From assembly GCF_001422205.1 (NCBI RefSeq), contig NZ_LMMJ01000008.1, forward strand, positions 548,915 through 612,914: a DNA stretch of 64,000 bases, in the 5' to 3' direction. The notes beneath the pieces are model-generated. The model made no database searches and had not been told where the DNA came from. It was given only the letters and a program-made list of their open reading frames with translations. Positions 21,370 through 28,219 of this stretch are shown in pieces. Each line of letters starts with the position of its first letter. Position 1 is the stretch's first letter. The translations under genes and the position numbers were made by a program. Source of the stretch: Curtobacterium sp. Leaf261 (GTDB lineage Bacteria; Actinomycetota; Actinomycetes; Actinomycetales; Microbacteriaceae).

Positions 21370-22872
21370 TCAGCGCGCGGAGTGCCTGTGGCGATCGCGT
21401 TCCGGCCGGTCCGAGCCACTCCGGACCAGACGCATCTCACGCGTCGAGAGGGGCGCGTTCTCGAGTCCGTCCGGGCCACCCCAGATCGTGTCGCCGGACA
21501 TCCGGTCGTCCTGGAAGCCGGGATCGCGGTCCTCGTCCTCGCGCTGGCCAGGGCGGATCGCAGAAAGTGTTCCCGTCGCGGTCGACTCCAGCCCGTGGCG
21601 CGACAGCTCCTCGTCGCGCTGCTTGCCGAGGAACTCGCGGTTCGCCGCCTGCGCGTCGTTGAACATCGTCGTGCGGCCGGTGACGATCGAGCGGATCCGA
21701 CGGCGCTCCCACCACATCTTGCCGAGGATCATCATGACGACCCCCGCGGCCATGTAGCAGGCCATCGTGACGAGACCCCGGCCGTACCCGGGCCCGACCC
21801 CGTAGATCGCGTGCTTGATCATGTCGACCATGCTCGAGCCGACCACGACGTGGTTCAGCCAGGCGAAGGGCTCCGGCATGAACCACTTCGGGTACGCGCC
21901 ACCGGACGACGGCATCGAGAGGAACACGAAGCAGATCATCGCCGGCGCCGCGATGAACCGCCCGGCGAAGTAGCTCAGCCCGTTCACGGTGAGACCGATC
22001 GCGACGATCCACCCCCACGAGATGAGGACCAGGGGCAGGAAGTGCCCGTGGATCGCGCCGACGACGGGTCCCGCGAGGGTGTTCGTGATGAGCGAGATGA
22101 TGAGACCGCCCGCGACGATGACCGTGACGCGCGTGCGGTGGCGGAGCGGGCCGCCCATGATGCCGATGAACATCGCGACCATGTAGCCGCCGATGCACCA
22201 CGCGAGCATGACGTACATCGACACGGTGCCGTACTCGTCGTACGCCGGCAGGGGCGCGAGTTCGGTCACGGTCGGAGCGGCCCCGCCGCCGCCTTCGATG
22301 ATGCTGGAGAGCGTGGCGGGGACGAGGCTCGCCACCTGGAACTGGTGTGCGCTTGCCTTCCAGATGGTGTTCGTCGCCGGGTCGAACGCCACCGCGACGG
22401 TGCCGTTCAGGACGTCGCGCTTGGCCTGGGCGATCGAGTCGTACGTGTGCATGAGGTACTCGCCGGGCAGCGCCTTGTCGAGTGCTGCCGACAGCGTCGG
22501 GTCTCCGCCGATGACGGCGAGGGGGACGTCGTGCGGGTGCGGCGCGTGGAACGCGAAGACGTAGCAGAGGCAGAAGCCCACGATGAAGAAGAGCGGCATC
22601 CAGAGTTGCAGCCCGATGAGCTGGAGCGACGGGTGCAGCGTCGAGTACCAGCGGCGGTAGCGGTTCACGTGCTGCGGCGGCGGGACGGGGACACCGCCGG
22701 GACGACGCGACCCCGCGAGCTTCGCGCCGCGCCTGGGCACCGAGGACCCGCGCTTCGACGGACGCGTTGCCTGCACCGACCGCGACGCCGTGGTCTTGGC
22801 TGCGGGCGACTCCGGCGACTCCGGCGACCCCGCGAGGTCGCCGTCCTTGACGTCGTTCCTGGTGGTGCTCAC
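21370..22872 (-). CDS. DUF3533-type (ABC-2/SNG1-like) membrane protein
   Basis: A 500-residue integral membrane protein. A basic, disordered N-terminus of ~75 residues precedes the first helix (LIGLQLWMPLFFIVGFCLCYVFAF). An external domain of ~125 residues (ending SSIIEGGGGAAPTV) follows, then five or so helices, including VMLAWCIGGYMVAMFIGIMGG. This arrangement matches DUF3533/YhgE-like proteins, relatives of ABC-2 permeases implicated in export or envelope stress. A charged ~110-residue cytoplasmic tail ends the protein. The GTG start has only a weak AGAAGAGG site; a TATCCT -10 lies about 40 bases upstream. It is downstream of the lipoprotein cassette in the reading direction but has its own promoter. 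Confidence 0.72.
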   Translation of the reverse strand: MSTTRNDVKDGDLAGSPESPESPAAKTTASRSVQATRPSKRGSSVPRRGAKLAGSRRPGGVPVPPPQHVNRYRRWYSTLHPSLQLIGLQLWMPLFFIVGFCLCYVFAFHAPHPHDVPLAVIGGDPTLSAALDKALPGEYLMHTYDSIAQAKRDVLNGTVAVAFDPATNTIWKASAHQFQVASLVPATLSSIIEGGGGAAPTVTELAPLPAYDEYGTVSMYVMLAWCIGGYMVAMFIGIMGGPLRHRTRVTVIVAGGLIISLITNTLAGPVVGAIHGHFLPLVLISWGWIVAIGLTVNGLSYFAGRFIAAPAMICFVFLSMPSSGGAYPKWFMPEPFAWLNHVVVGSSMVDMIKHAIYGVGPGYGRGLVTMACYMAAGVVMMILGKMWWERRRIRSIVTGRTTMFNDAQAANREFLGKQRDEELSRHGLESTATGTLSAIRPGQREDEDRDPGFQDDRMSGDTIWGGPDGLENAPLSTREMRLVRSGSDRPERDRHRHSAR

Positions 22873-22959
22873 GCGGGCCGGGCCTCTTCTCTGCTGCGAT
22901 CGATCGGATGCTCAGGATACGCCAGGGTCCTGCGGGTGGGGCGGTGTCGACGTCCGCGT

Positions 22960-23598
22960 TCAGCCAGCGGGTGCGGACGGATCTGCGGGGGTCGGAGTCG
23001 GGGTGGTCGGCGCGGTCGGGGGGATGTAGGGCGGGGTGATGGTGTGTCGTTGCGACCACCTGCTCGTGGTGAGCACCTTGTCGTCCCCCTCGGCGCACAT
23101 CGTCCGCGCGAAGATCGTCGTTCCGTGGACGGTTGACACGAGCTCGACGAACAGGCCGCCCTCGACGGAACGGCTCCCCGGCCACCGCAGCTGCTGGCCG
23201 GGGGAGTCGCTTCCGGTCAGCGTCGGCGAGAGCGTCGGATCCCACCCCTCGGCGACCCACCGCTGGCGGATCGCCGCGAGGACGGATCGTCGCTGGTCCT
23301 TCGTCATCCCCGGCCCGTGGCGCGACAGCACCCACTGTGCGCCTCTGGGCCCGCACTCCTCCGCGGTGCTGTCGACGTTCTCCCAGTCGCCCCCGACGAG
23401 GTACTGGGTGTCGTCGAGGAGGGTGTCCAGGGACAGGAAGGCGCGCTTCGCTGGGTCCGAGTTCGTCGGTGTGATCGGGATGTCCTCTCGGGGTGCACCC
23501 GAGCCGCAGCCCGCGAGCGTCGCTGCGAGCAGTGCTCCCAGCGCCAGCGGTCGGAACAACCTCGTTGGTCGGGCCTCTCGGCCGTGCTCTGTCCGCAT
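22960..23598 (-). CDS. putative lipoprotein, paralogue 1 of tandem pair
   Basis: A 212-residue protein with a lipoprotein signal: basic N-terminus, hydrophobic stretch and lipobox LAGC with acylated Cys at residue 31. The mature part shares long blocks with the neighbouring gene at 23605: FLSLDTLLDDTQ, GGDW, RRSVLAAIRQRW, SVEGGLFVELVSTVH and the cysteines of EECG and MCAEGD, which could form a disulfide. The tail is a Thr/Pro-rich repeat (TAPTTPTPTPADP). No known domain is recognised. It lies 6 bp behind its paralogue in a four-gene operon; a role as an envelope-anchored partner or immunity protein for the hydrolase is inference. Confidence 0.78.
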   Translation of the reverse strand: MRTEHGREARPTRLFRPLALGALLAATLAGCGSGAPREDIPITPTNSDPAKRAFLSLDTLLDDTQYLVGGDWENVDSTAEECGPRGAQWVLSRHGPGMTKDQRRSVLAAIRQRWVAEGWDPTLSPTLTGSDSPGQQLRWPGSRSVEGGLFVELVSTVHGTTIFARTMCAEGDDKVLTTSRWSQRHTITPPYIPPTAPTTPTPTPADPSAPAG

Positions 23599-23604
23599 TC
23601 GTCG

Positions 23605-24228
23605 TCAGTCGGTCTCGGGAGCGGGATCACTCGCTGCGGGCATGGTGGGAGTTGGTGTGGTCGGTGCGCTCACTGGGAAGTAGGGCGGGGTCGATGTGTG
23701 TCGTTCCGACCACCTGCTCGCGTCCAGGGCATCGACGTCGCCCTCGGCGCACCTGGTCTGCGCGAAGATCGTCGTCGCGTGGACGGTCGACACGAGCTCG
23801 ACGAACAGCCCGCCCTCGACCGAGAGACGTGCCGGGTACCGCAGCTGCAATCCGGGAGAGTCGCTTCCGAGCAGCGTCCGGGTGAGCGTCGGGGTCCACC
23901 CTTCCTCGATCCACCGCTGCCGGACTGCGTCGAGGACGCTCCTCCGCTCGTCGTCGGTCATCCCACGGCCGAATCGTGAGAGGCCCCACCGCGCGCCGGC
24001 CTGCGAGCACTCGGTCGCGACGTCGTCGTCGTTCAGCCAGTCGCCGCCGATGACGTCCTGGGTGTCCTCGAGGATCGCGTTGAGGGACAGGAACGCTTCC
24101 TTGGCAGCGGATGAACTGGTCGGGTGCATGGACGGATCCTCGGTGGTGGCGGATGCGGTGCAGCCGGTGGCGGAGATGCCGATCAACAGCGAAGCGGCGA
24201 GGGCGAGCAGGGTACGGATGGAGTGCAT
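23605..24228 (-). CDS. putative lipoprotein, paralogue 2 of tandem pair
   Basis: A 207-residue lipoprotein with signal LLALAASLLIGISATGC (acylated Cys 23). It is a clear tandem duplicate of the following gene, with nearly identical central blocks (AFLSLNAILEDTQ, RRSVLDAVRQRW, GSDSPGLQLRYP, SVEGGLFVELVSTVH) and the same two mature cysteines. Differences cluster near the N-terminus of the mature part and in the Thr/Pro-rich tail. The start codon is 3 bp behind the hydrolase stop, so the two are translated together. No family is recognised. Confidence 0.78.
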   Translation of the reverse strand: MHSIRTLLALAASLLIGISATGCTASATTEDPSMHPTSSSAAKEAFLSLNAILEDTQDVIGGDWLNDDDVATECSQAGARWGLSRFGRGMTDDERRSVLDAVRQRWIEEGWTPTLTRTLLGSDSPGLQLRYPARLSVEGGLFVELVSTVHATTIFAQTRCAEGDVDALDASRWSERHTSTPPYFPVSAPTTPTPTMPAASDPAPETD

Positions 24229-24231
24229 GGG

Positions 24232-26109
24232 TCAGGGAATCGGCTTTCCGTCTGGGGTGTACCCGAGGCTCGTGTAGGCGGTGTTGCGGAGTGGTGCCGT
24301 GTCAGCATCGAGGTATCCGTGGTCCTCCGACGAAGTGCCGAACGTGGCGTCATGCGCCGTCGCACCCGGGTAGAGCACGCCCTCGATCACGGCGTCGTCG
24401 GAGGAGAACGTCCGAGCACCCCAGGCGGGCGTGCCGGGGTCGAGCGGATGGGGGACCCTGAAGTCCTGGATGGTCATGTGTCCGCTCGCCGATCCCCGAT
24501 CGGCGAGCCGGTCCGGGACGTCGACGTCGATCGCGCCACGGCCGAGGTTCGCAGTGTGATCGGCCTTCGCCTGACTCGCCCAGACGTGGCTGGCGGGCAC
24601 ATCGATCGCGTGGACGTCCGGCAGGCTCGTGTCGATGCCGGCTGATGCGAGCAGGGTCAGGTTCGCGACGGGGGTGTGCTGGACGGCGAGCGTCGCTGTG
24701 GTCGTGCCGTAGGAGTGCGCGACCACAGAGAGGTTCTCGCCCCCGGACCAGTGCCGGGTGCCCGAGACGCCGCGGAGGAACGTCGCGAGGTGCTCTGCGC
24801 CCGTCTTCGCCTTGGCGGATGAGAGCACCTCCGTGAGGTCGGGTGCCGCCGCCGGGGTGTCGTACCCGATCCAGGCAACCGTGGCGACGTCGGGATCGGT
24901 GTGGACGGACAGAGCTGCTGCGCGCTGTGCACGAAGCAGGTTGGTCGTGGCTCCCGCCCAACCGACCATGCCTCCGGCGACCGTGGCGCCCATCCCGGGT
25001 ATGGCGACCGTGATGTTCCGGGCCGTGTCCATGTTGCCGATCGCGACGGCGGCCAGCACCGGTCGGCCGAGCGTCAAGGACACGATCGTCCGGTGCGCTC
25101 GATTCGACCCGTGCTCGAGCGTGTCACTGAGCGCCTGCAATGCGGGTGCCATCGCAGAGAGCCGCGAATACTCCTCCGCCTCCGCAGCGGAGTGGGCATG
25201 CACCGCCAACGAGCGTCGGAGTTCCTCGTACCGACGAAGTCGAACGCGCACGCTGTGCTCGTTCGCGACCCCGCGATCGAAGTAGGCCACCCCGTCGAGG
25301 TTGCCGATGAACACCGACGCACCCAGCGCGAGCGCCTCCTGTTGCCCGGCATCGAGTGCGCCCCACCACGCCGACACGGTCCTGGTCGACGGCGGATCGG
25401 CCATGATGCTCGCCCATGCATCCGGATGCGTGCGTCGCCACCGAGCGATCGCGCCCCTGCCGTGCGACGCGAGTGCCGCCAGCAGGGGGAGCCGTGCGAG
25501 GGAGTCGAACCGCGCCACGGTCGCCCCGAAGTCGATCCGCCGCAGCAGGACCGGCACGGATGCGGCCCCCGGCAGCTGGAAGCCGTCGGACGCTTGGCCT
25601 CCGCCGGACGTGTGCGCTCGGAACGCCGCGGCGAGGTCGTCCTGAGCCGTTCGCCATCGTCGCCGCAACCGCCGGGCGTCGTCGAGGAGCTCCTCGTTCA
25701 GCACGGCGTACTCCGCGGGGACGGAGCCGTCCCCGATCGCTTCGCGCCGGATCCGCGTGTGCAGCTCCTCGATGTCGGCGAGAAGCCGCGACCGAGTCCG
25801 ACGGACACCGCCGACGGCCTCCGCGAACGTCTCGAGTGCCGTCGCGACCGCGCCGCCGCCGTCGGCGAGGGCGCGGGTCGTCGTGGGCACGGTGTGCAGC
25901 GCCGACGGGAGCCGCTCGGTGACGCCGGGGGACCGCATCGCGACCCCGACGCCGCCCCAGGCGCTCGCCGCGTCACGACCGGCCTGCGCGGCCCGTGCCG
26001 TCGACGATCGCAGTCCGTCCGCCGCCGCACTGACGGTGTCGGCCACCGCCGCGACGGTCGGCAGGTCGGACGCCGCGACGAGCCGCTCCGCCACGAGCCG
26101 GTCAGCCAC
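24232..26109 (-). CDS. DUF1023-type alpha/beta hydrolase with helical N-terminus
   Basis: A 625-residue protein. The first ~200 residues are alanine-rich helices of the kind seen in WXG/LXG-like secreted proteins. Next comes the marker of DUF1023 hydrolases (VSAWWGALDAGQQEAL then IGNLDGVAYFDRGVANEHS), and then an alpha/beta hydrolase domain. The nucleophile is Ser 466 in VVAHSYGT and the likely catalytic His is 597 in SSEDHGYLD. The family is predicted to contain lipases or esterases; the substrate is unknown. GTG 26109 overlaps the stop of the small helical gene by 8 bases. Fused helical region, helical partner and lipoproteins together suggest a secreted enzyme, although no classical signal peptide is present. 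Confidence 0.78.
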   Translation of the reverse strand: MADRLVAERLVAASDLPTVAAVADTVSAAADGLRSSTARAAQAGRDAASAWGGVGVAMRSPGVTERLPSALHTVPTTTRALADGGGAVATALETFAEAVGGVRRTRSRLLADIEELHTRIRREAIGDGSVPAEYAVLNEELLDDARRLRRRWRTAQDDLAAAFRAHTSGGGQASDGFQLPGAASVPVLLRRIDFGATVARFDSLARLPLLAALASHGRGAIARWRRTHPDAWASIMADPPSTRTVSAWWGALDAGQQEALALGASVFIGNLDGVAYFDRGVANEHSVRVRLRRYEELRRSLAVHAHSAAEAEEYSRLSAMAPALQALSDTLEHGSNRAHRTIVSLTLGRPVLAAVAIGNMDTARNITVAIPGMGATVAGGMVGWAGATTNLLRAQRAAALSVHTDPDVATVAWIGYDTPAAAPDLTEVLSSAKAKTGAEHLATFLRGVSGTRHWSGGENLSVVAHSYGTTTATLAVQHTPVANLTLLASAGIDTSLPDVHAIDVPASHVWASQAKADHTANLGRGAIDVDVPDRLADRGSASGHMTIQDFRVPHPLDPGTPAWGARTFSSDDAVIEGVLYPGATAHDATFGTSSEDHGYLDADTAPLRNTAYTSLGYTPDGKPIP

Positions 26110-26422
26110 GCCGCACTGCCGATGATCGCTCCGACGCGGTGTCCGCCATCGCTTCGTCAGCCGTGATGAACGCCTGCATCGCCACGGACGTCGCGAGCAG
26201 CGCCTCGGACACGCGCCCGGCGGCTGCCATCGCGACGTCTCGCCGAGCGGCCACGAACGACCGAGCGGCTCCCGCACAGGTGGTCTGGCCGACTGCGTCC
26301 TGCACCTCGGTCAGCGCGAGGTCGACCTCGACCGCGGCATCCTGCAGGTCGCCTCCGGCGCTCGCCGTCCGTCGGACGACGTCCTCCACCGCGACGACGT
26401 CGATGCTCCACATCGCGCCCAT
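26102..26422 (-). CDS. small helical protein, ESX/DUF6507-like
   Basis: A 106-residue all-helical protein starting MWSIDVVAVEDVVRRT, which resembles DUF6507-type or WXG100-sized partner proteins (a WxI start and two long Ala/Val-rich helices). It lacks a strict central WxG motif. An AGGGGGTG Shine-Dalgarno 3-4 bases before ATG 26422 fixes the start. It is the first gene of the cassette, overlaps the hydrolase gene by 8 bases, and probably binds the hydrolase's helical N-terminus. The family assignment is tentative. Confidence 0.65.
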   Translation of the reverse strand: MGAMWSIDVVAVEDVVRRTASAGGDLQDAAVEVDLALTEVQDAVGQTTCAGAARSFVAARRDVAMAAAGRVSEALLATSVAMQAFITADEAMADTASERSSAVRRG

Positions 26423-26474
26423 GACACCCCCTGGGATCGGACTCAGCACGCGACCCGCTTCGCGTGCGGTGCCC

Positions 26475-26505
26475 AGTATTCCAGCAGGTGTATCTGATGT
26501 GTCAA
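26475..26505 (-). promoter_or_regulatory. near-consensus promoter of the hydrolase cassette
   Basis: On the minus strand a perfect -35 TTGACA (26500-26505) is followed 17-18 bases later by GGAATA/GAATAC. The stretch is unusually AT-rich for the window. A small hairpin (ACCCGG/CCGGGT, 26505-26521) touches the -35 and may end the antiporter-side transcript. Leader length to ATG 26422 is about 50 bases. Confidence 0.6.
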
Positions 26506-26530
26506 CCCGGAGGGACCGGGTGTGGAGAAG

Positions 26531-28219
26531 TCAGGAGCGCGAGCGCCCGGCCTGTGACGAGTCCATGGCGAGCTCCTCCGCATCGAGGGTCACGAGCACG
26601 CGCCGCATGACCTCCTCGTCGAGGTTCCCCTCCTCGCGCTGCTCGAGCACGACCTCGCGACGGCGGTCGAGCAGTTCCCGTCGGATCACCTGCACCTGCG
26701 CCGCGGTGAGGCGAGCAGGGCCCCTGGCGGCCTCGTCCTCCTCGTCCTCGGCTTCGCGCCGGAAGTCGTCGGCCTGCCGCTCGAGGCGGGTCCGGAGCCG
26801 ACCGACGGACGCGGCCACCGCCTCCTCACCGAACTGCGACGCCCACGTCTCGTGGCGCTCGTCGATGAGCCGGAGCGCGGCGGAGGTGGTGCGGCGGGAG
26901 AGCGCCAGCTCGTCGGCGATGTCGCGCTCGCCCTCGAGTGGGTCGCGGACGTCCAGTCGCCGGATCACGGCGGGGAGCGTCAGGCCCTGGATGAGCAGGG
27001 TGCCGACCGTCACGACGAACGCGATGAGGAAGATGGTGTCCTGCGCCGGGATGTCGGTGGGGGAGTTGACGACCGAGACCGCCGCGGCGAGGGTCACCAC
27101 GCCGCGCATGCCCGTCCACGAGACGACGGTCAGCTCGCGCCAGGACATGTACGGCTCTCGGGTGCCCCGCAGCCAGCGCAACCACTTCCGACGGCGGGTG
27201 ATCCGGACGACCCTCGGACGGAGCCACCGCCCGTTGACCCGTCGGCGGTAGTACGACAGGAACACGAACACCGGCCGCACCAGGATGACGACGGCGAGCA
27301 CCACGAAGGCGACACCGACGCTCTGCCAGAGGCTGCGGTCGCTCTCGATCGTGCTCTGGACGACGTCGCGGAGCTGCAGACCGATGAGCGCGAACACGAA
27401 GCCCTCGAGGATGACGTCGGCACTCGTCCACAGGGGGCGCTCCTGCAGCCGCGTCGCGTAGCTCCCCTTCGGCGAGTTGAAGCCGATGTAGAGGCCCGCC
27501 GTGACGACCGCGATGACGCCGGAGCCGGAGAGGTCCTCCGCGAGGATGTAGGCCACGAACGGGAGCAGGATGCTCATGATCGTCTCCACGATCGGGTCGT
27601 TGATCCGCATCTGGATCCAGTGCACGACGACGCCGAGCACGCCGCCCACGACGAGGCCCACACCGATGGCGAGCCCGAAGATGCCGAGGTCCTGCACCCA
27701 GGTGAGCCCCGCGCCGGCGATGATCAGCGTGAACACGCGCACGAGCGTCAGCGATGACGCGTCGTTGATGAGGCTCTCGCCGGACAGCACGTCCATCACG
27801 CGCCGGGGGAGCCCGAGCTTCCGGCCGATCGCCGCGGCGGAGACGGCGTCCGGCGGGGCGACCACCGCGCCGAGCAGGATCGCGGCCGGGAGCGACATGT
27901 CCGGGATGAGCGCGTACGCGACGAACCCGACGACGATCGCGGTGACGATCGGGAGCACGATGCCGAGCCGCCGGATCTGGCGCGCGGACTTCCGGAAGCT
28001 CTGCCAGGACACGTCGAGCGCGGCCGAGTACAGCAGCGGCGGCAGGACGATCTCGAGGATGACGTCGGAGTCGATCTCGGTGTGCGGGATGCCGGGGATG
28101 AACGACGCGGCGAGCGCGACCGCGGTCACGAGGAGCGGCGCGGGCAGGTTCTTCGCCCGGGCGAACCCGGTGATCGCCAGGGACACGACCAGCACGACGA
28201 GCAGTTCTGCGATGTCCAT
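26531..28219 (-). CDS. CPA1-family Na+(K+)/H+ antiporter
   Basis: A 562-residue cation/proton antiporter of the NhaP/YjcE type with about twelve hydrophobic helices. Conserved features are VVAPPDAVSAAAIGRKLGLPRR, SGESLINDASSLTLVRV (the Asp in the ND pair is the proposed ion-binding residue), and WTGMRGVVTLAAAVSV. The C-terminal ~150 residues form a charged cytoplasmic regulatory tail. It would exchange Na+ or K+ for H+ at the cell membrane for pH and salt homeostasis. ATG 28219 is preferred to ATG 28252 because AGAGGA lies about 11 bases before it and it begins the first helix. Ion preference cannot be read from sequence. Confidence 0.87.
   Translation of the reverse strand: MDIAELLVVLVVSLAITGFARAKNLPAPLLVTAVALAASFIPGIPHTEIDSDVILEIVLPPLLYSAALDVSWQSFRKSARQIRRLGIVLPIVTAIVVGFVAYALIPDMSLPAAILLGAVVAPPDAVSAAAIGRKLGLPRRVMDVLSGESLINDASSLTLVRVFTLIIAGAGLTWVQDLGIFGLAIGVGLVVGGVLGVVVHWIQMRINDPIVETIMSILLPFVAYILAEDLSGSGVIAVVTAGLYIGFNSPKGSYATRLQERPLWTSADVILEGFVFALIGLQLRDVVQSTIESDRSLWQSVGVAFVVLAVVILVRPVFVFLSYYRRRVNGRWLRPRVVRITRRRKWLRWLRGTREPYMSWRELTVVSWTGMRGVVTLAAAVSVVNSPTDIPAQDTIFLIAFVVTVGTLLIQGLTLPAVIRRLDVRDPLEGERDIADELALSRRTTSAALRLIDERHETWASQFGEEAVAASVGRLRTRLERQADDFRREAEDEEDEAARGPARLTAAQVQVIRRELLDRRREVVLEQREEGNLDEEVMRRVLVTLDAEELAMDSSQAGRSRS

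What the first reader, a model, noticed from the sequence alone, without database searches (positions are those of the whole stretch)
22960..26422. Four-gene cassette: helical partner, alpha/beta hydrolase with helical N-terminus and two duplicated lipoproteins
Seen: four minus-strand genes coupled by 8-bp overlap, 3-bp and 6-bp gaps, behind a near-consensus TTGACA promoter. The first protein is a small helical WXG100-sized protein. The second is a DUF1023-type hydrolase (Ser466, His597) with a ~200-residue helical N-terminus. The last two are tandem paralogous lipoproteins (Cys31, Cys23). Known: type VII secreted lipases such as staphylococcal TslA use small helical partner proteins and a lipoprotein (TilA) as immunity; duplicated immunity genes are common behind toxins. 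Inference: this is an exported lipase effector module with two immunity or anchoring lipoproteins. No secretion ATPase lies in the window.
Basis: partly seen in the sequence, partly recalled or inferred. Interest (0 to 1): 0.75.

Follow-up and report, generated by a model that had tools for sequence, protein, structure and literature searches.

The report
Curtobacterium lipase toxin with lipoprotein antidotes
Four neighbouring genes in a Curtobacterium bacterium look like a self-contained weapon: a predicted lipid-cutting toxin, a small helper that takes it to a type VII secretion machine, and two membrane-anchored antidotes, and it belongs to a larger family of such weapons that seems not to have been described.

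Summary
Gene 1 is a DUF6507 protein with a type VII-like FxxxD motif; gene 2 joins a WxG-bearing N-terminal domain to an Abhydrolase_8 (DUF1023) hydrolase; genes 3-4 are paralogous lipoproteins. Ten open cassettes of this kind (three in this genome) all keep helper, hydrolase and lipoprotein together, with 1-5 lipoprotein copies. Four loci carry leftover hydrolase tips before such lipoproteins, one with no hydrolase gene called nearby. The cassette is an insertion: its flanking genes are adjacent in 29 of 29 relatives fetched. The genome's EccC locus holds another DUF6507 gene, followed by a TNT toxin with a related N-terminus. In 299 Microbacteriaceae genomes DUF6507 is over cut-off in exactly the 26 with one EccC score class and in none of 273 others. 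DUF6507 genes are followed by large proteins with varied toxin ends (NADase, nuclease, RNase, ADP-ribosyltransferase, hydrolase). Best reading: the lipase branch of a polymorphic toxin family served by one actinobacterial type VII subtype. Secretion, lipase activity and immunity are inferred; no structure could be predicted.

The parts
26102..26422 (-). DUF6507 small partner protein (106 aa); putative type VII targeting partner
   Evidence: Pfam PF20117 35.7 bits over cut-off 25; overlaps the hydrolase start in 10 of 10 open cassettes
26156..26170 (-). FxxxD motif (F85-D89, FITAD), M92 downstream: candidate type VII export motif of the partner
   Evidence: In 19 aligned proteins D89 and M92 are invariant and residue 85 is F 11, Y 3, I 3, V 2
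24232..26109 (-). Effector: N-terminal export-type domain plus Abhydrolase_8 hydrolase (625 aa, GTG start)
25609..26109 (-). N-terminal domain (about residues 1-167) shared with other DUF6507-linked proteins; WxG at W51-G53
   Evidence: profile-profile match to 12 DUF6507-linked proteins, probability 97.5%, E 8.7e-12 over 159 columns; W51 and G53 invariant in the 6 sequences of A1
24544..25062 (-). Abhydrolase_8 (PF06259) domain, residues 350-522
   Evidence: 92.3 bits over cut-off 20.5
24712..24714 (-). Ser466 codon, predicted nucleophile (AHSYG)
   Evidence: invariant in 57 hydrolases
24352..24354 (-). His586 codon, predicted catalytic His (instead of His597)
   Evidence: at least 90% conserved in 57 hydrolases
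23605..24228 (-). Immunity-type lipoprotein 1 (207 aa, lipobox ATGC, Cys23)
   Evidence: no Pfam match
22960..23598 (-). Immunity-type lipoprotein 2 (212 aa, lipobox LAGC, Cys31), 60% identical to lipoprotein 1
26500..26505 (-). TTGACA hexamer upstream of the operon; no matching -10 found
22873..26530 (.). Inserted accessory segment between two conserved neighbours
   Evidence: flanking genes adjacent in 29 of 29 relatives fetched

Best explanation
The cassette is a toxin-immunity module of a type VII secretion system in a Curtobacterium. The DUF6507 protein pairs with the N-terminal domain of the hydrolase; together they would carry the two-part signal (FxxxD on the partner, WxG on the effector) read by an EccC ATPase encoded elsewhere in the genome. 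The Abhydrolase_8 domain is released outside and damages a neighbour, most likely by cutting envelope lipids (Ser466 and His586 as nucleophile and base). The two lipoproteins sit on the outer face of the producer's own membrane and neutralise the enzyme, one for its own toxin and the other perhaps for a variant toxin of a rival. Shown by sequence: gene order, families, motifs, conservation, insertion, co-occurrence. Inferred: secretion, partner binding, lipid substrate, immunity, bacterial target.
For: Family and motif evidence. Own-genome EccC over cut-off with EccD/YukD-like and WXG100 genes, in one locus with a DUF6507 gene and a TNT-ended protein. The hydrolase N-terminus is homologous to that protein and to other DUF6507-linked ones. 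In 299 Microbacteriaceae genomes DUF6507 is over cut-off in 26 of 26 genomes with one EccC score class and 0 of 273 others; in the genus 22 of 22 vs 3 of 44. 64 of 68 DUF6507 genes scored are followed by a protein of at least 300 aa, 60 of them with this N-terminal domain, with varied C-termini including known toxin domains. Immunity: 59 of 63 family hits lie within five genes downstream of an Abhydrolase_8 gene; 21 of 22 distinct close copies have a lipobox by pattern; leftover hydrolase tips before the lipoprotein at four loci; a lipoprotein with no hydrolase gene called nearby; an invariant Cys pair. Export-half swap in G083.
Against: No structure or complex was predicted. The 6-sequence profile of this hydrolase clade does not match WXG100 structures; only a mixed profile of 57 does. 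The DUF6507 profile matched only generic helical chains. Lipid as substrate rests on fold class: the one solved lipase hit is weak (E 0.007). DUF6507 is not universal with this EccC class: G042, outside the family, has EccC at 563.5 bits and no DUF6507. G032 has DUF6507 genes without EccC over cut-off, and two Microbacteriaceae outside the class (G114, G199) have DUF6507 hits below cut-off. The genome has a second FtsK/EssC-like ATPase, so the exporter is not certain. Nothing shows a bacterial rather than a eukaryotic target for the lipase.
Confidence: 0.72

Rival explanations
1. The same type VII export module and enzyme, but the lipoproteins are anchors, foldases or activators of a surface lipase used for nutrition or envelope upkeep, not antidotes.
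For: Both lipoproteins follow the enzyme closely, and helper proteins of secreted lipases are known (recalled). A separate, shorter Abhydrolase_8 protein next to genes of gatCA size recurs without such partners, so the fold is not toxic as such.
Against: Copy number varies 1-5 per locus. A lipoprotein stands with only a 39-residue hydrolase leftover before it in G067, and in C. pusillum AA3 one stands behind a different, open hydrolase with a 62-residue leftover of this kind before it. A helper would not be expected to be kept without its enzyme. The N-terminal module elsewhere carries NADase, nuclease, RNase and ADP-ribosyltransferase domains.
Confidence: 0.12
2. The exported hydrolase is aimed at eukaryotic hosts or grazers (plant, fungus, amoeba), with the lipoproteins only preventing self-harm.
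For: Curtobacterium lives on plants (recalled); TNT and ADP-ribosyltransferase domains also occur in host-directed toxins (recalled).
Against: Antidotes in many copies, and copies kept without the matching toxin, fit attack between bacteria; the same family includes nuclease and CdiA-type RNase ends.
Confidence: 0.12
3. The cassette is an inactive remnant or a non-secreted esterase operon picked up by chance.
For: The cassette genes have low codon adaptation (four of the six lowest GC3 values among the window's called genes).
Against: All four frames are open, Ser466 and His586 are kept, and the genome carries two further open copies.
Confidence: 0.04

Closest known systems
TslA-TilA-TlaA1/A2 of Staphylococcus aureus (PMC10730906; abstract and sections 6, 8, 12 read)
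   Same: Lipase-type toxin, small partners, lipoprotein immunity in variable tandem copies, up to three paralogous loci per genome
   Different: TslA has the lipase first and the helical domain last, immunity gene 5' and partners 3'; here all are the other way round. No Pfam family for the lipoproteins here. T7SSb there, an actinobacterial EccC here
LXG toxins with Lap partners (PMC9600955, PMC10765036; passages read)
   Same: Partner gene before the effector, FxxxD on the partner, variable C-terminal toxin, immunity gene after it
   Different: No LXG or Lap-type Pfam match; different phylum and ATPase. The 2023 review states that no LXG proteins are associated with T7SSa
Actinobacterial WXG/Rhs toxins already linked to type VII secretion (PMC3482391, PMC11217815; passages read)
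   Same: Polymorphic toxins with WXG-type or Rhs parts have been listed for actinobacteria and linked with T7SSa
   Different: DUF6507 and DUF1023 are not named in the passages seen; DUF1023 has 0 occurrences in the held text of PMC3482391
CpnT-type TNT toxins of mycobacteria (recalled; Pfam TNT matches here)
   Same: WXG100 genes, large N-terminal domain and TNT at the EccC locus of the same genome
   Different: The window's protein carries a hydrolase, not TNT, and did not match PF25547 (taken from recall to be CpnT-like); L243 did, below cut-off
Tox-ABhydrolase-1 to -3 of polymorphic toxins (PMC3482391; section 33 read)
   Same: Alpha/beta hydrolases as toxin ends
   Different: Other families; Tox-ABhydrolase-1 is described as mainly T6SS-delivered
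Abhydrolase_8/DUF1023 (PF06259)
   Same: Catalytic domain over cut-off
   Different: A shorter actinobacterial form lacks the partner and lipoproteins

Membership tests
Abhydrolase_8 (PF06259) | Score over the curated cut-off | tested here: met
   92.3 vs 20.5 bits
Abhydrolase_8 (PF06259) | Conserved nucleophile Ser and C-terminal His | tested here: met
   Ser466 invariant, His586 at least 90% in 57
DUF6507 (PF20117) | Score over the curated cut-off | tested here: met
   35.7 vs 25 bits
Type VII secretion substrate complex | [YF]xxxD/E-type export motif on one partner | tested here: met
   FITAD in P0001; D invariant in 19 of 19 with F, Y, I or V four before it
Type VII secretion substrate complex | WxG-type motif on the other partner | tested here: met
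   W51, G53 invariant in the 6 of A1
Type VII secretion substrate complex | EccC ATPase in the genome | tested here: met
   564.8 bits over cut-off 346.55, contig C9
Type VII secretion substrate complex | WXG100-like sequence of the effector N-terminus | tested here: inconclusive
   Mixed 57-sequence profile hits EsxA (8e-6) and EsxB (9e-4); 6-sequence profile of this clade does not
Type VII secretion substrate complex | EccC-dependent secretion | not testable with these tools
   needs experiment
Polymorphic toxin system | Shared N-terminal module with varied toxin C-termini | tested here: met
   47 proteins in 18 C-terminal clusters (7 of two or more, 11 single); nuclease, NADase, RNase, ADP-ribosyltransferase, hydrolase ends
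Polymorphic toxin system | Adjacent immunity-type genes, lone copies, leftover toxin tips | tested here: met
Polymorphic toxin system | Toxicity relieved by the immunity protein | not testable with these tools
   needs experiment
TslA (Tsl1) family | Lipase N-terminal, helical targeting domain C-terminal | tested here: not met
   hydrolase at residues 350-522 of 625, export-type domain N-terminal
TslA (Tsl1) family | TilA-type (DUF576) lipoprotein | tested here: not met
   no Pfam family for P0003 or P0004 at E up to 1
LXG toxins | LXG domain in Pfam | tested here: not met
   no such match in P0002 at E up to 1

The most novel reading that the evidence does not exclude
DUF6507 plus the N-terminal domain seen here defines an undescribed, LXG-like class of polymorphic toxins dedicated to one subtype of actinobacterial EccC machine, so that these actinobacteria use an ESX-type system chiefly as an antibacterial weapon. 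The window's cassette would be its lipase branch, with outer-face lipoprotein antidotes and a domain order opposite to TslA.
Probability: 0.6. Interest if true: 0.8.

Novelty: new variant of a known kind. Interest (0 to 1): 0.68.

Why it matters
Antibacterial toxins of type VII systems have been worked out mostly in Bacillota; a 2023 review states that no LXG proteins are associated with the actinobacterial T7SSa (passage). This cassette and its relatives give a concrete, testable actinobacterial counterpart: a partner family (DUF6507) with no paper in the library searched, matched one-to-one with an EccC score class in 299 genomes of one family, and a predicted lipase toxin whose antidotes are lipoproteins. 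It would also give a function to one branch of DUF1023 hydrolases and suggest that lipase toxin plus lipoprotein immunity arose at least twice with opposite domain orders.

Tried and rejected
Rejected: His597 as catalytic residue (not conserved). A sigma-70 promoter pair (none found). Some lipoprotein copies being cytoplasmic: starts had been called too late, and in-frame upstream sequence holds a lipobox. One search lists 23 entries, 22 with the pattern; one entry (L002_1) is a cut copy of another (L059_7), so 21 of 22; the exception (L095_10) has LPGC, which the pattern left out. A hydrolase broken in C. pusillum AA3, as my notes say: wrong. The gene there is open (590 aa) but of another Abhydrolase_8 type; what is left of the window's type is a 62-residue tip before the lipoprotein. 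Phage-defence role: no PADLOC match. Plasmid carriage: 12 plasmid records match, none covering more than 52% of the hydrolase. Homology of the lipoprotein to a solved structure: none better than E 0.49. Base composition does not mark the cassette as foreign (GC 0.708, middle of the window range), though codon use is low.

Limits of the counts. EccC was split into two score classes after seeing the scores (658 bits and above; 567 and below); one partial hit (G232, 453 bits, query 175-563) was left out of the second class, and counting it in changes p from 5e-38 to 1e-36. No test corrects for kinship; the 26 genomes span 13 genera. Repeats were removed by sequence identity, imperfectly, as loci overlap; the 63 hits were not made unique. 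The 49 proteins include six WXG100 proteins of EccC loci and one 385-aa protein, and in several DUF6507 proteins the matched motif is at another site than F85-D89; the column count (19 proteins) is the cleaner one. In one search, 17 of 64 downstream proteins were dropped because they run off their locus, some of the 11 single C-termini may be cut or shifted frames, and one of the four misses (L104_7) is a start-calling error. The NT HMM was built from the hydrolases themselves, so those match it by construction. Genes in fetched loci were called by a codon-score script of my own (and later); it missed some genes (for example the first of five lipoprotein copies on contig C7, found).
Full report
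WHERE IT IS. The window is part of contig C8 of a 3.93-Mb, 14-contig genome. The conserved gene next door is found in 64 of 66 genus genomes, this one included; the nearest other copy is 79% identical, so the species is not closely represented.

THE GENES. All four genes stand as described. P0001 (106 aa) is DUF6507; P0002 (625 aa) carries Abhydrolase_8 at residues 350-522; P0003 and P0004 match no Pfam family and are 60% identical. Ser466 is invariant in 57 hydrolases and His586 at least 90% conserved; His597 is not conserved. In 32 lipoproteins two cysteines (74 and 160 of P0003) are invariant, as expected for a disulfide outside the cell (inference).

IT IS AN INSERTION. In 29 of 29 relatives whose region was fetched, the antiporter-type gene (window 26531-28219) and the membrane-protein gene (21370-22872) lie directly side by side; only this genome has the cassette between them. 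The cassette genes hold four of the six lowest GC3 values among the window's called genes.

IT KEEPS TOGETHER. The genome holds two more close copies (hydrolases 53% and 51% identical, contigs C13 and C7) and more distant ones. Ten distinct open cassettes of this clade were seen: three in this genome and seven in other Curtobacterium. In 10 of 10 the DUF6507 gene overlaps the hydrolase start by 4 or 8 bp and a lipoprotein of the same family follows, in 1 to 5 copies (five on C7). The lipoprotein HMM had 63 hits in the loci then held, 59 of them within five genes downstream of an Abhydrolase_8 gene, a set of 284 of 1502 genes. Most loci were fetched because they hold such a hydrolase and some overlap, so it is the placing within loci that counts.

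THE LIPOPROTEINS BEHAVE LIKE ANTIDOTES. 21 of 22 distinct close copies have a lipobox after a hydrophobic stretch. Leftovers of the hydrolase C-terminus lie in front of lipoproteins at four loci: 32 residues (81% identical) on contig C7, 55 residues (71%) in C. flaccumfaciens JUb65, 62 residues (81%) in C. pusillum AA3, and 39 residues (56%, E 2e-4) in G067 (18 and 14 sources searched, some twice). Garrett et al. describe a like leftover for S. aureus tspA (PMC9484751, passages). In AA3 the DUF6507 gene is followed by an open 590-aa hydrolase of another type, so the window's type of toxin seems to have been replaced while its tip and lipoprotein stayed. In G067 no hydrolase gene was called in the 18 kb fetched around the lipoprotein, and the genome has no EccC over cut-off. 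In the wider sense the lipoprotein family is found in 62 of 66 Curtobacterium genomes.

THE EXPORT SIDE. The genome has EccC (564.8 bits) with EccD/YukD-like and WXG100 genes. In that locus a DUF6507 gene is followed by a 773-aa protein ending in a TNT (NADase) domain. The N-terminus of the window's hydrolase clade matches that protein (40.8 bits) and, profile against profile, 12 DUF6507-linked proteins with probability 97.5% over 159 columns. In 19 aligned DUF6507-like proteins a D and an M are invariant, with F (11), Y (3), I (3) or V (2) four residues before the D. This resembles the [YF]xxxD/E export motif of ESX substrates and Lap1 proteins (PMC10765036 and PMC9600955, passages). A looser pattern is met by 47 of 49 proteins against 12.6 after shuffling. 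The effector side has W51-x-G53, invariant in six. A DUF6507 HMM also picked up the WXG100 protein of EccC loci.

CO-OCCURRENCE. Among 66 Curtobacterium genomes DUF6507 is over cut-off in 22 of 22 with EccC over cut-off and in 3 of 44 without (p = 1e-14); two of the three are at 25-26 bits and one, G032, is strong. The ten cassettes lie in 8 genomes, all among the 22 (p = 6e-5; the other genomes were screened by the lipoprotein search, only 36 of them also with the hydrolase). Among 299 Microbacteriaceae genomes of 78 genera, EccC hits over cut-off (50 genomes) fall into two score classes, and DUF6507 is over cut-off in 26 of 26 genomes with the lower class and 0 of 273 others. In 24 of the 26 the two genes are 6.5-11.8 kb apart. 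Against this, two genomes outside the class (G114, G199) have sub-threshold DUF6507 hits, and G042 outside the family has an EccC of 563.5 bits and no DUF6507.

A POLYMORPHIC FAMILY. Of 68 distinct DUF6507 genes with a called neighbour, 64 are followed on the same strand by a protein of at least 300 aa, 60 of these with the N-terminal domain; 47 complete proteins fall into 18 C-terminal clusters, 11 of them single. Of 10 proteins scanned, 6 have a toxin domain over cut-off (endonuclease NS_2, TNT in two, CdiA-type RNase A in two, ADP-ribosyltransferase), one only a WXG100-like match below cut-off, three nothing. Glycine-zipper matches below cut-off occur in others. Of the 47, 42 have a further same-strand gene, 28 of them 60-260 aa within 150 bp.

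A NATURAL SWAP. In G083 (Curtobacterium sp. ISL-83; genome 88% complete, EccC below cut-off) the same hydrolase domain and lipoprotein follow a different N-terminus, which matches WXG100 and a putative T7SS signal domain below cut-off. An open frame just upstream looks unlike DUF6507 by eye (not scanned). So the toxin-antidote half appears to move between export halves.

HOW IT WOULD WORK. Inferred: DUF6507 and the N-terminal domain pair in the cytoplasm, EccC exports the complex, the hydrolase attacks lipids of a neighbour, and the lipoproteins shield the outer face of the producer's membrane. TslA offers a tested precedent for lipase plus lipoprotein immunity, toxic only when exported (PMC10730906, abstract and sections 6, 8, 12). 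Domain and gene order here are opposite to TslA.

WHAT IS KNOWN. Full-text searches found no paper with DUF6507; of 9 papers with DUF1023 or its aliases 7 were listed, none on type VII secretion by title or abstract start. WXG-type polymorphic toxins of actinobacteria and Rhs toxins linked with T7SSa are on record (PMC3482391, PMC11217815; passages), so the idea of such weapons is not new; this partner, N-terminal domain and EccC link are what I did not find. One Curtobacterium genome note mentions a WXG100 gene and says no T7SS genes were identified (PMC8830320, passage). Other passages seen: PMC12744356 and PMC5555719. Zhang et al. 2012 describe other alpha/beta hydrolase toxin families (PMC3482391, section 33). 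The library lacks most subscription journals.

LIMITS. No structure prediction was accepted. WXG100 likeness of the effector is seen only with a mixed profile. Kinship was not corrected for.

Noticed in passing
L054:5614-9649 (own genome contig C9): The EccC locus carries a WXG100 gene and a WXG100-like neighbour, a DUF6507 gene, a 773-aa protein ending in a TNT NADase domain and a 183-aa follower that may be its antidote.
   Followed up: partly
L057:6939-8431, L056:8556-9842, L178:7976-9480: DUF6507-like gene followed by a protein with a sub-threshold C-terminal glycine-zipper match, reminiscent of the type VII toxin EsxX; further small genes follow in some.
   Followed up: partly
L050:5776-9080 (contig C7): Five tandem lipoprotein copies with a leftover hydrolase tip between two of them, a possible recombination hot spot.
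   Followed up: partly
L174:5169-8669 (C. pusillum AA3): A different Abhydrolase_8 effector with its own DUF6507 gene, followed by a leftover tip and lipoprotein of the window's type: looks like replacement of one toxin by another.
   Followed up: partly
L048:4705-9273 (contig C13): A second, non-canonical FtsK/EssC-like ATPase (1522 aa as called) lies about 12 kb from another copy of the cassette; which ATPase serves which effector is open.
   Followed up: no
L090:8486-8827, L091:8498-8839, L094:9876-10217: A 113-aa protein with a hydrophobic stretch follows the lipoprotein in several relatives but not in the window.
   Followed up: no
L053:6654-8060 and relatives: A shorter Abhydrolase_8 protein near genes of gatCA type recurs in the loci without partner or lipoprotein; its role is unknown.
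   Followed up: no
L101:5410-7977, L137:5579-7923 (Arthrobacter, Kocuria): A small gene directly before an Abhydrolase_8 effector (DUF6507 in Arthrobacter, unassigned by Pfam in Kocuria), so the module may reach beyond Microbacteriaceae.
   Followed up: partly
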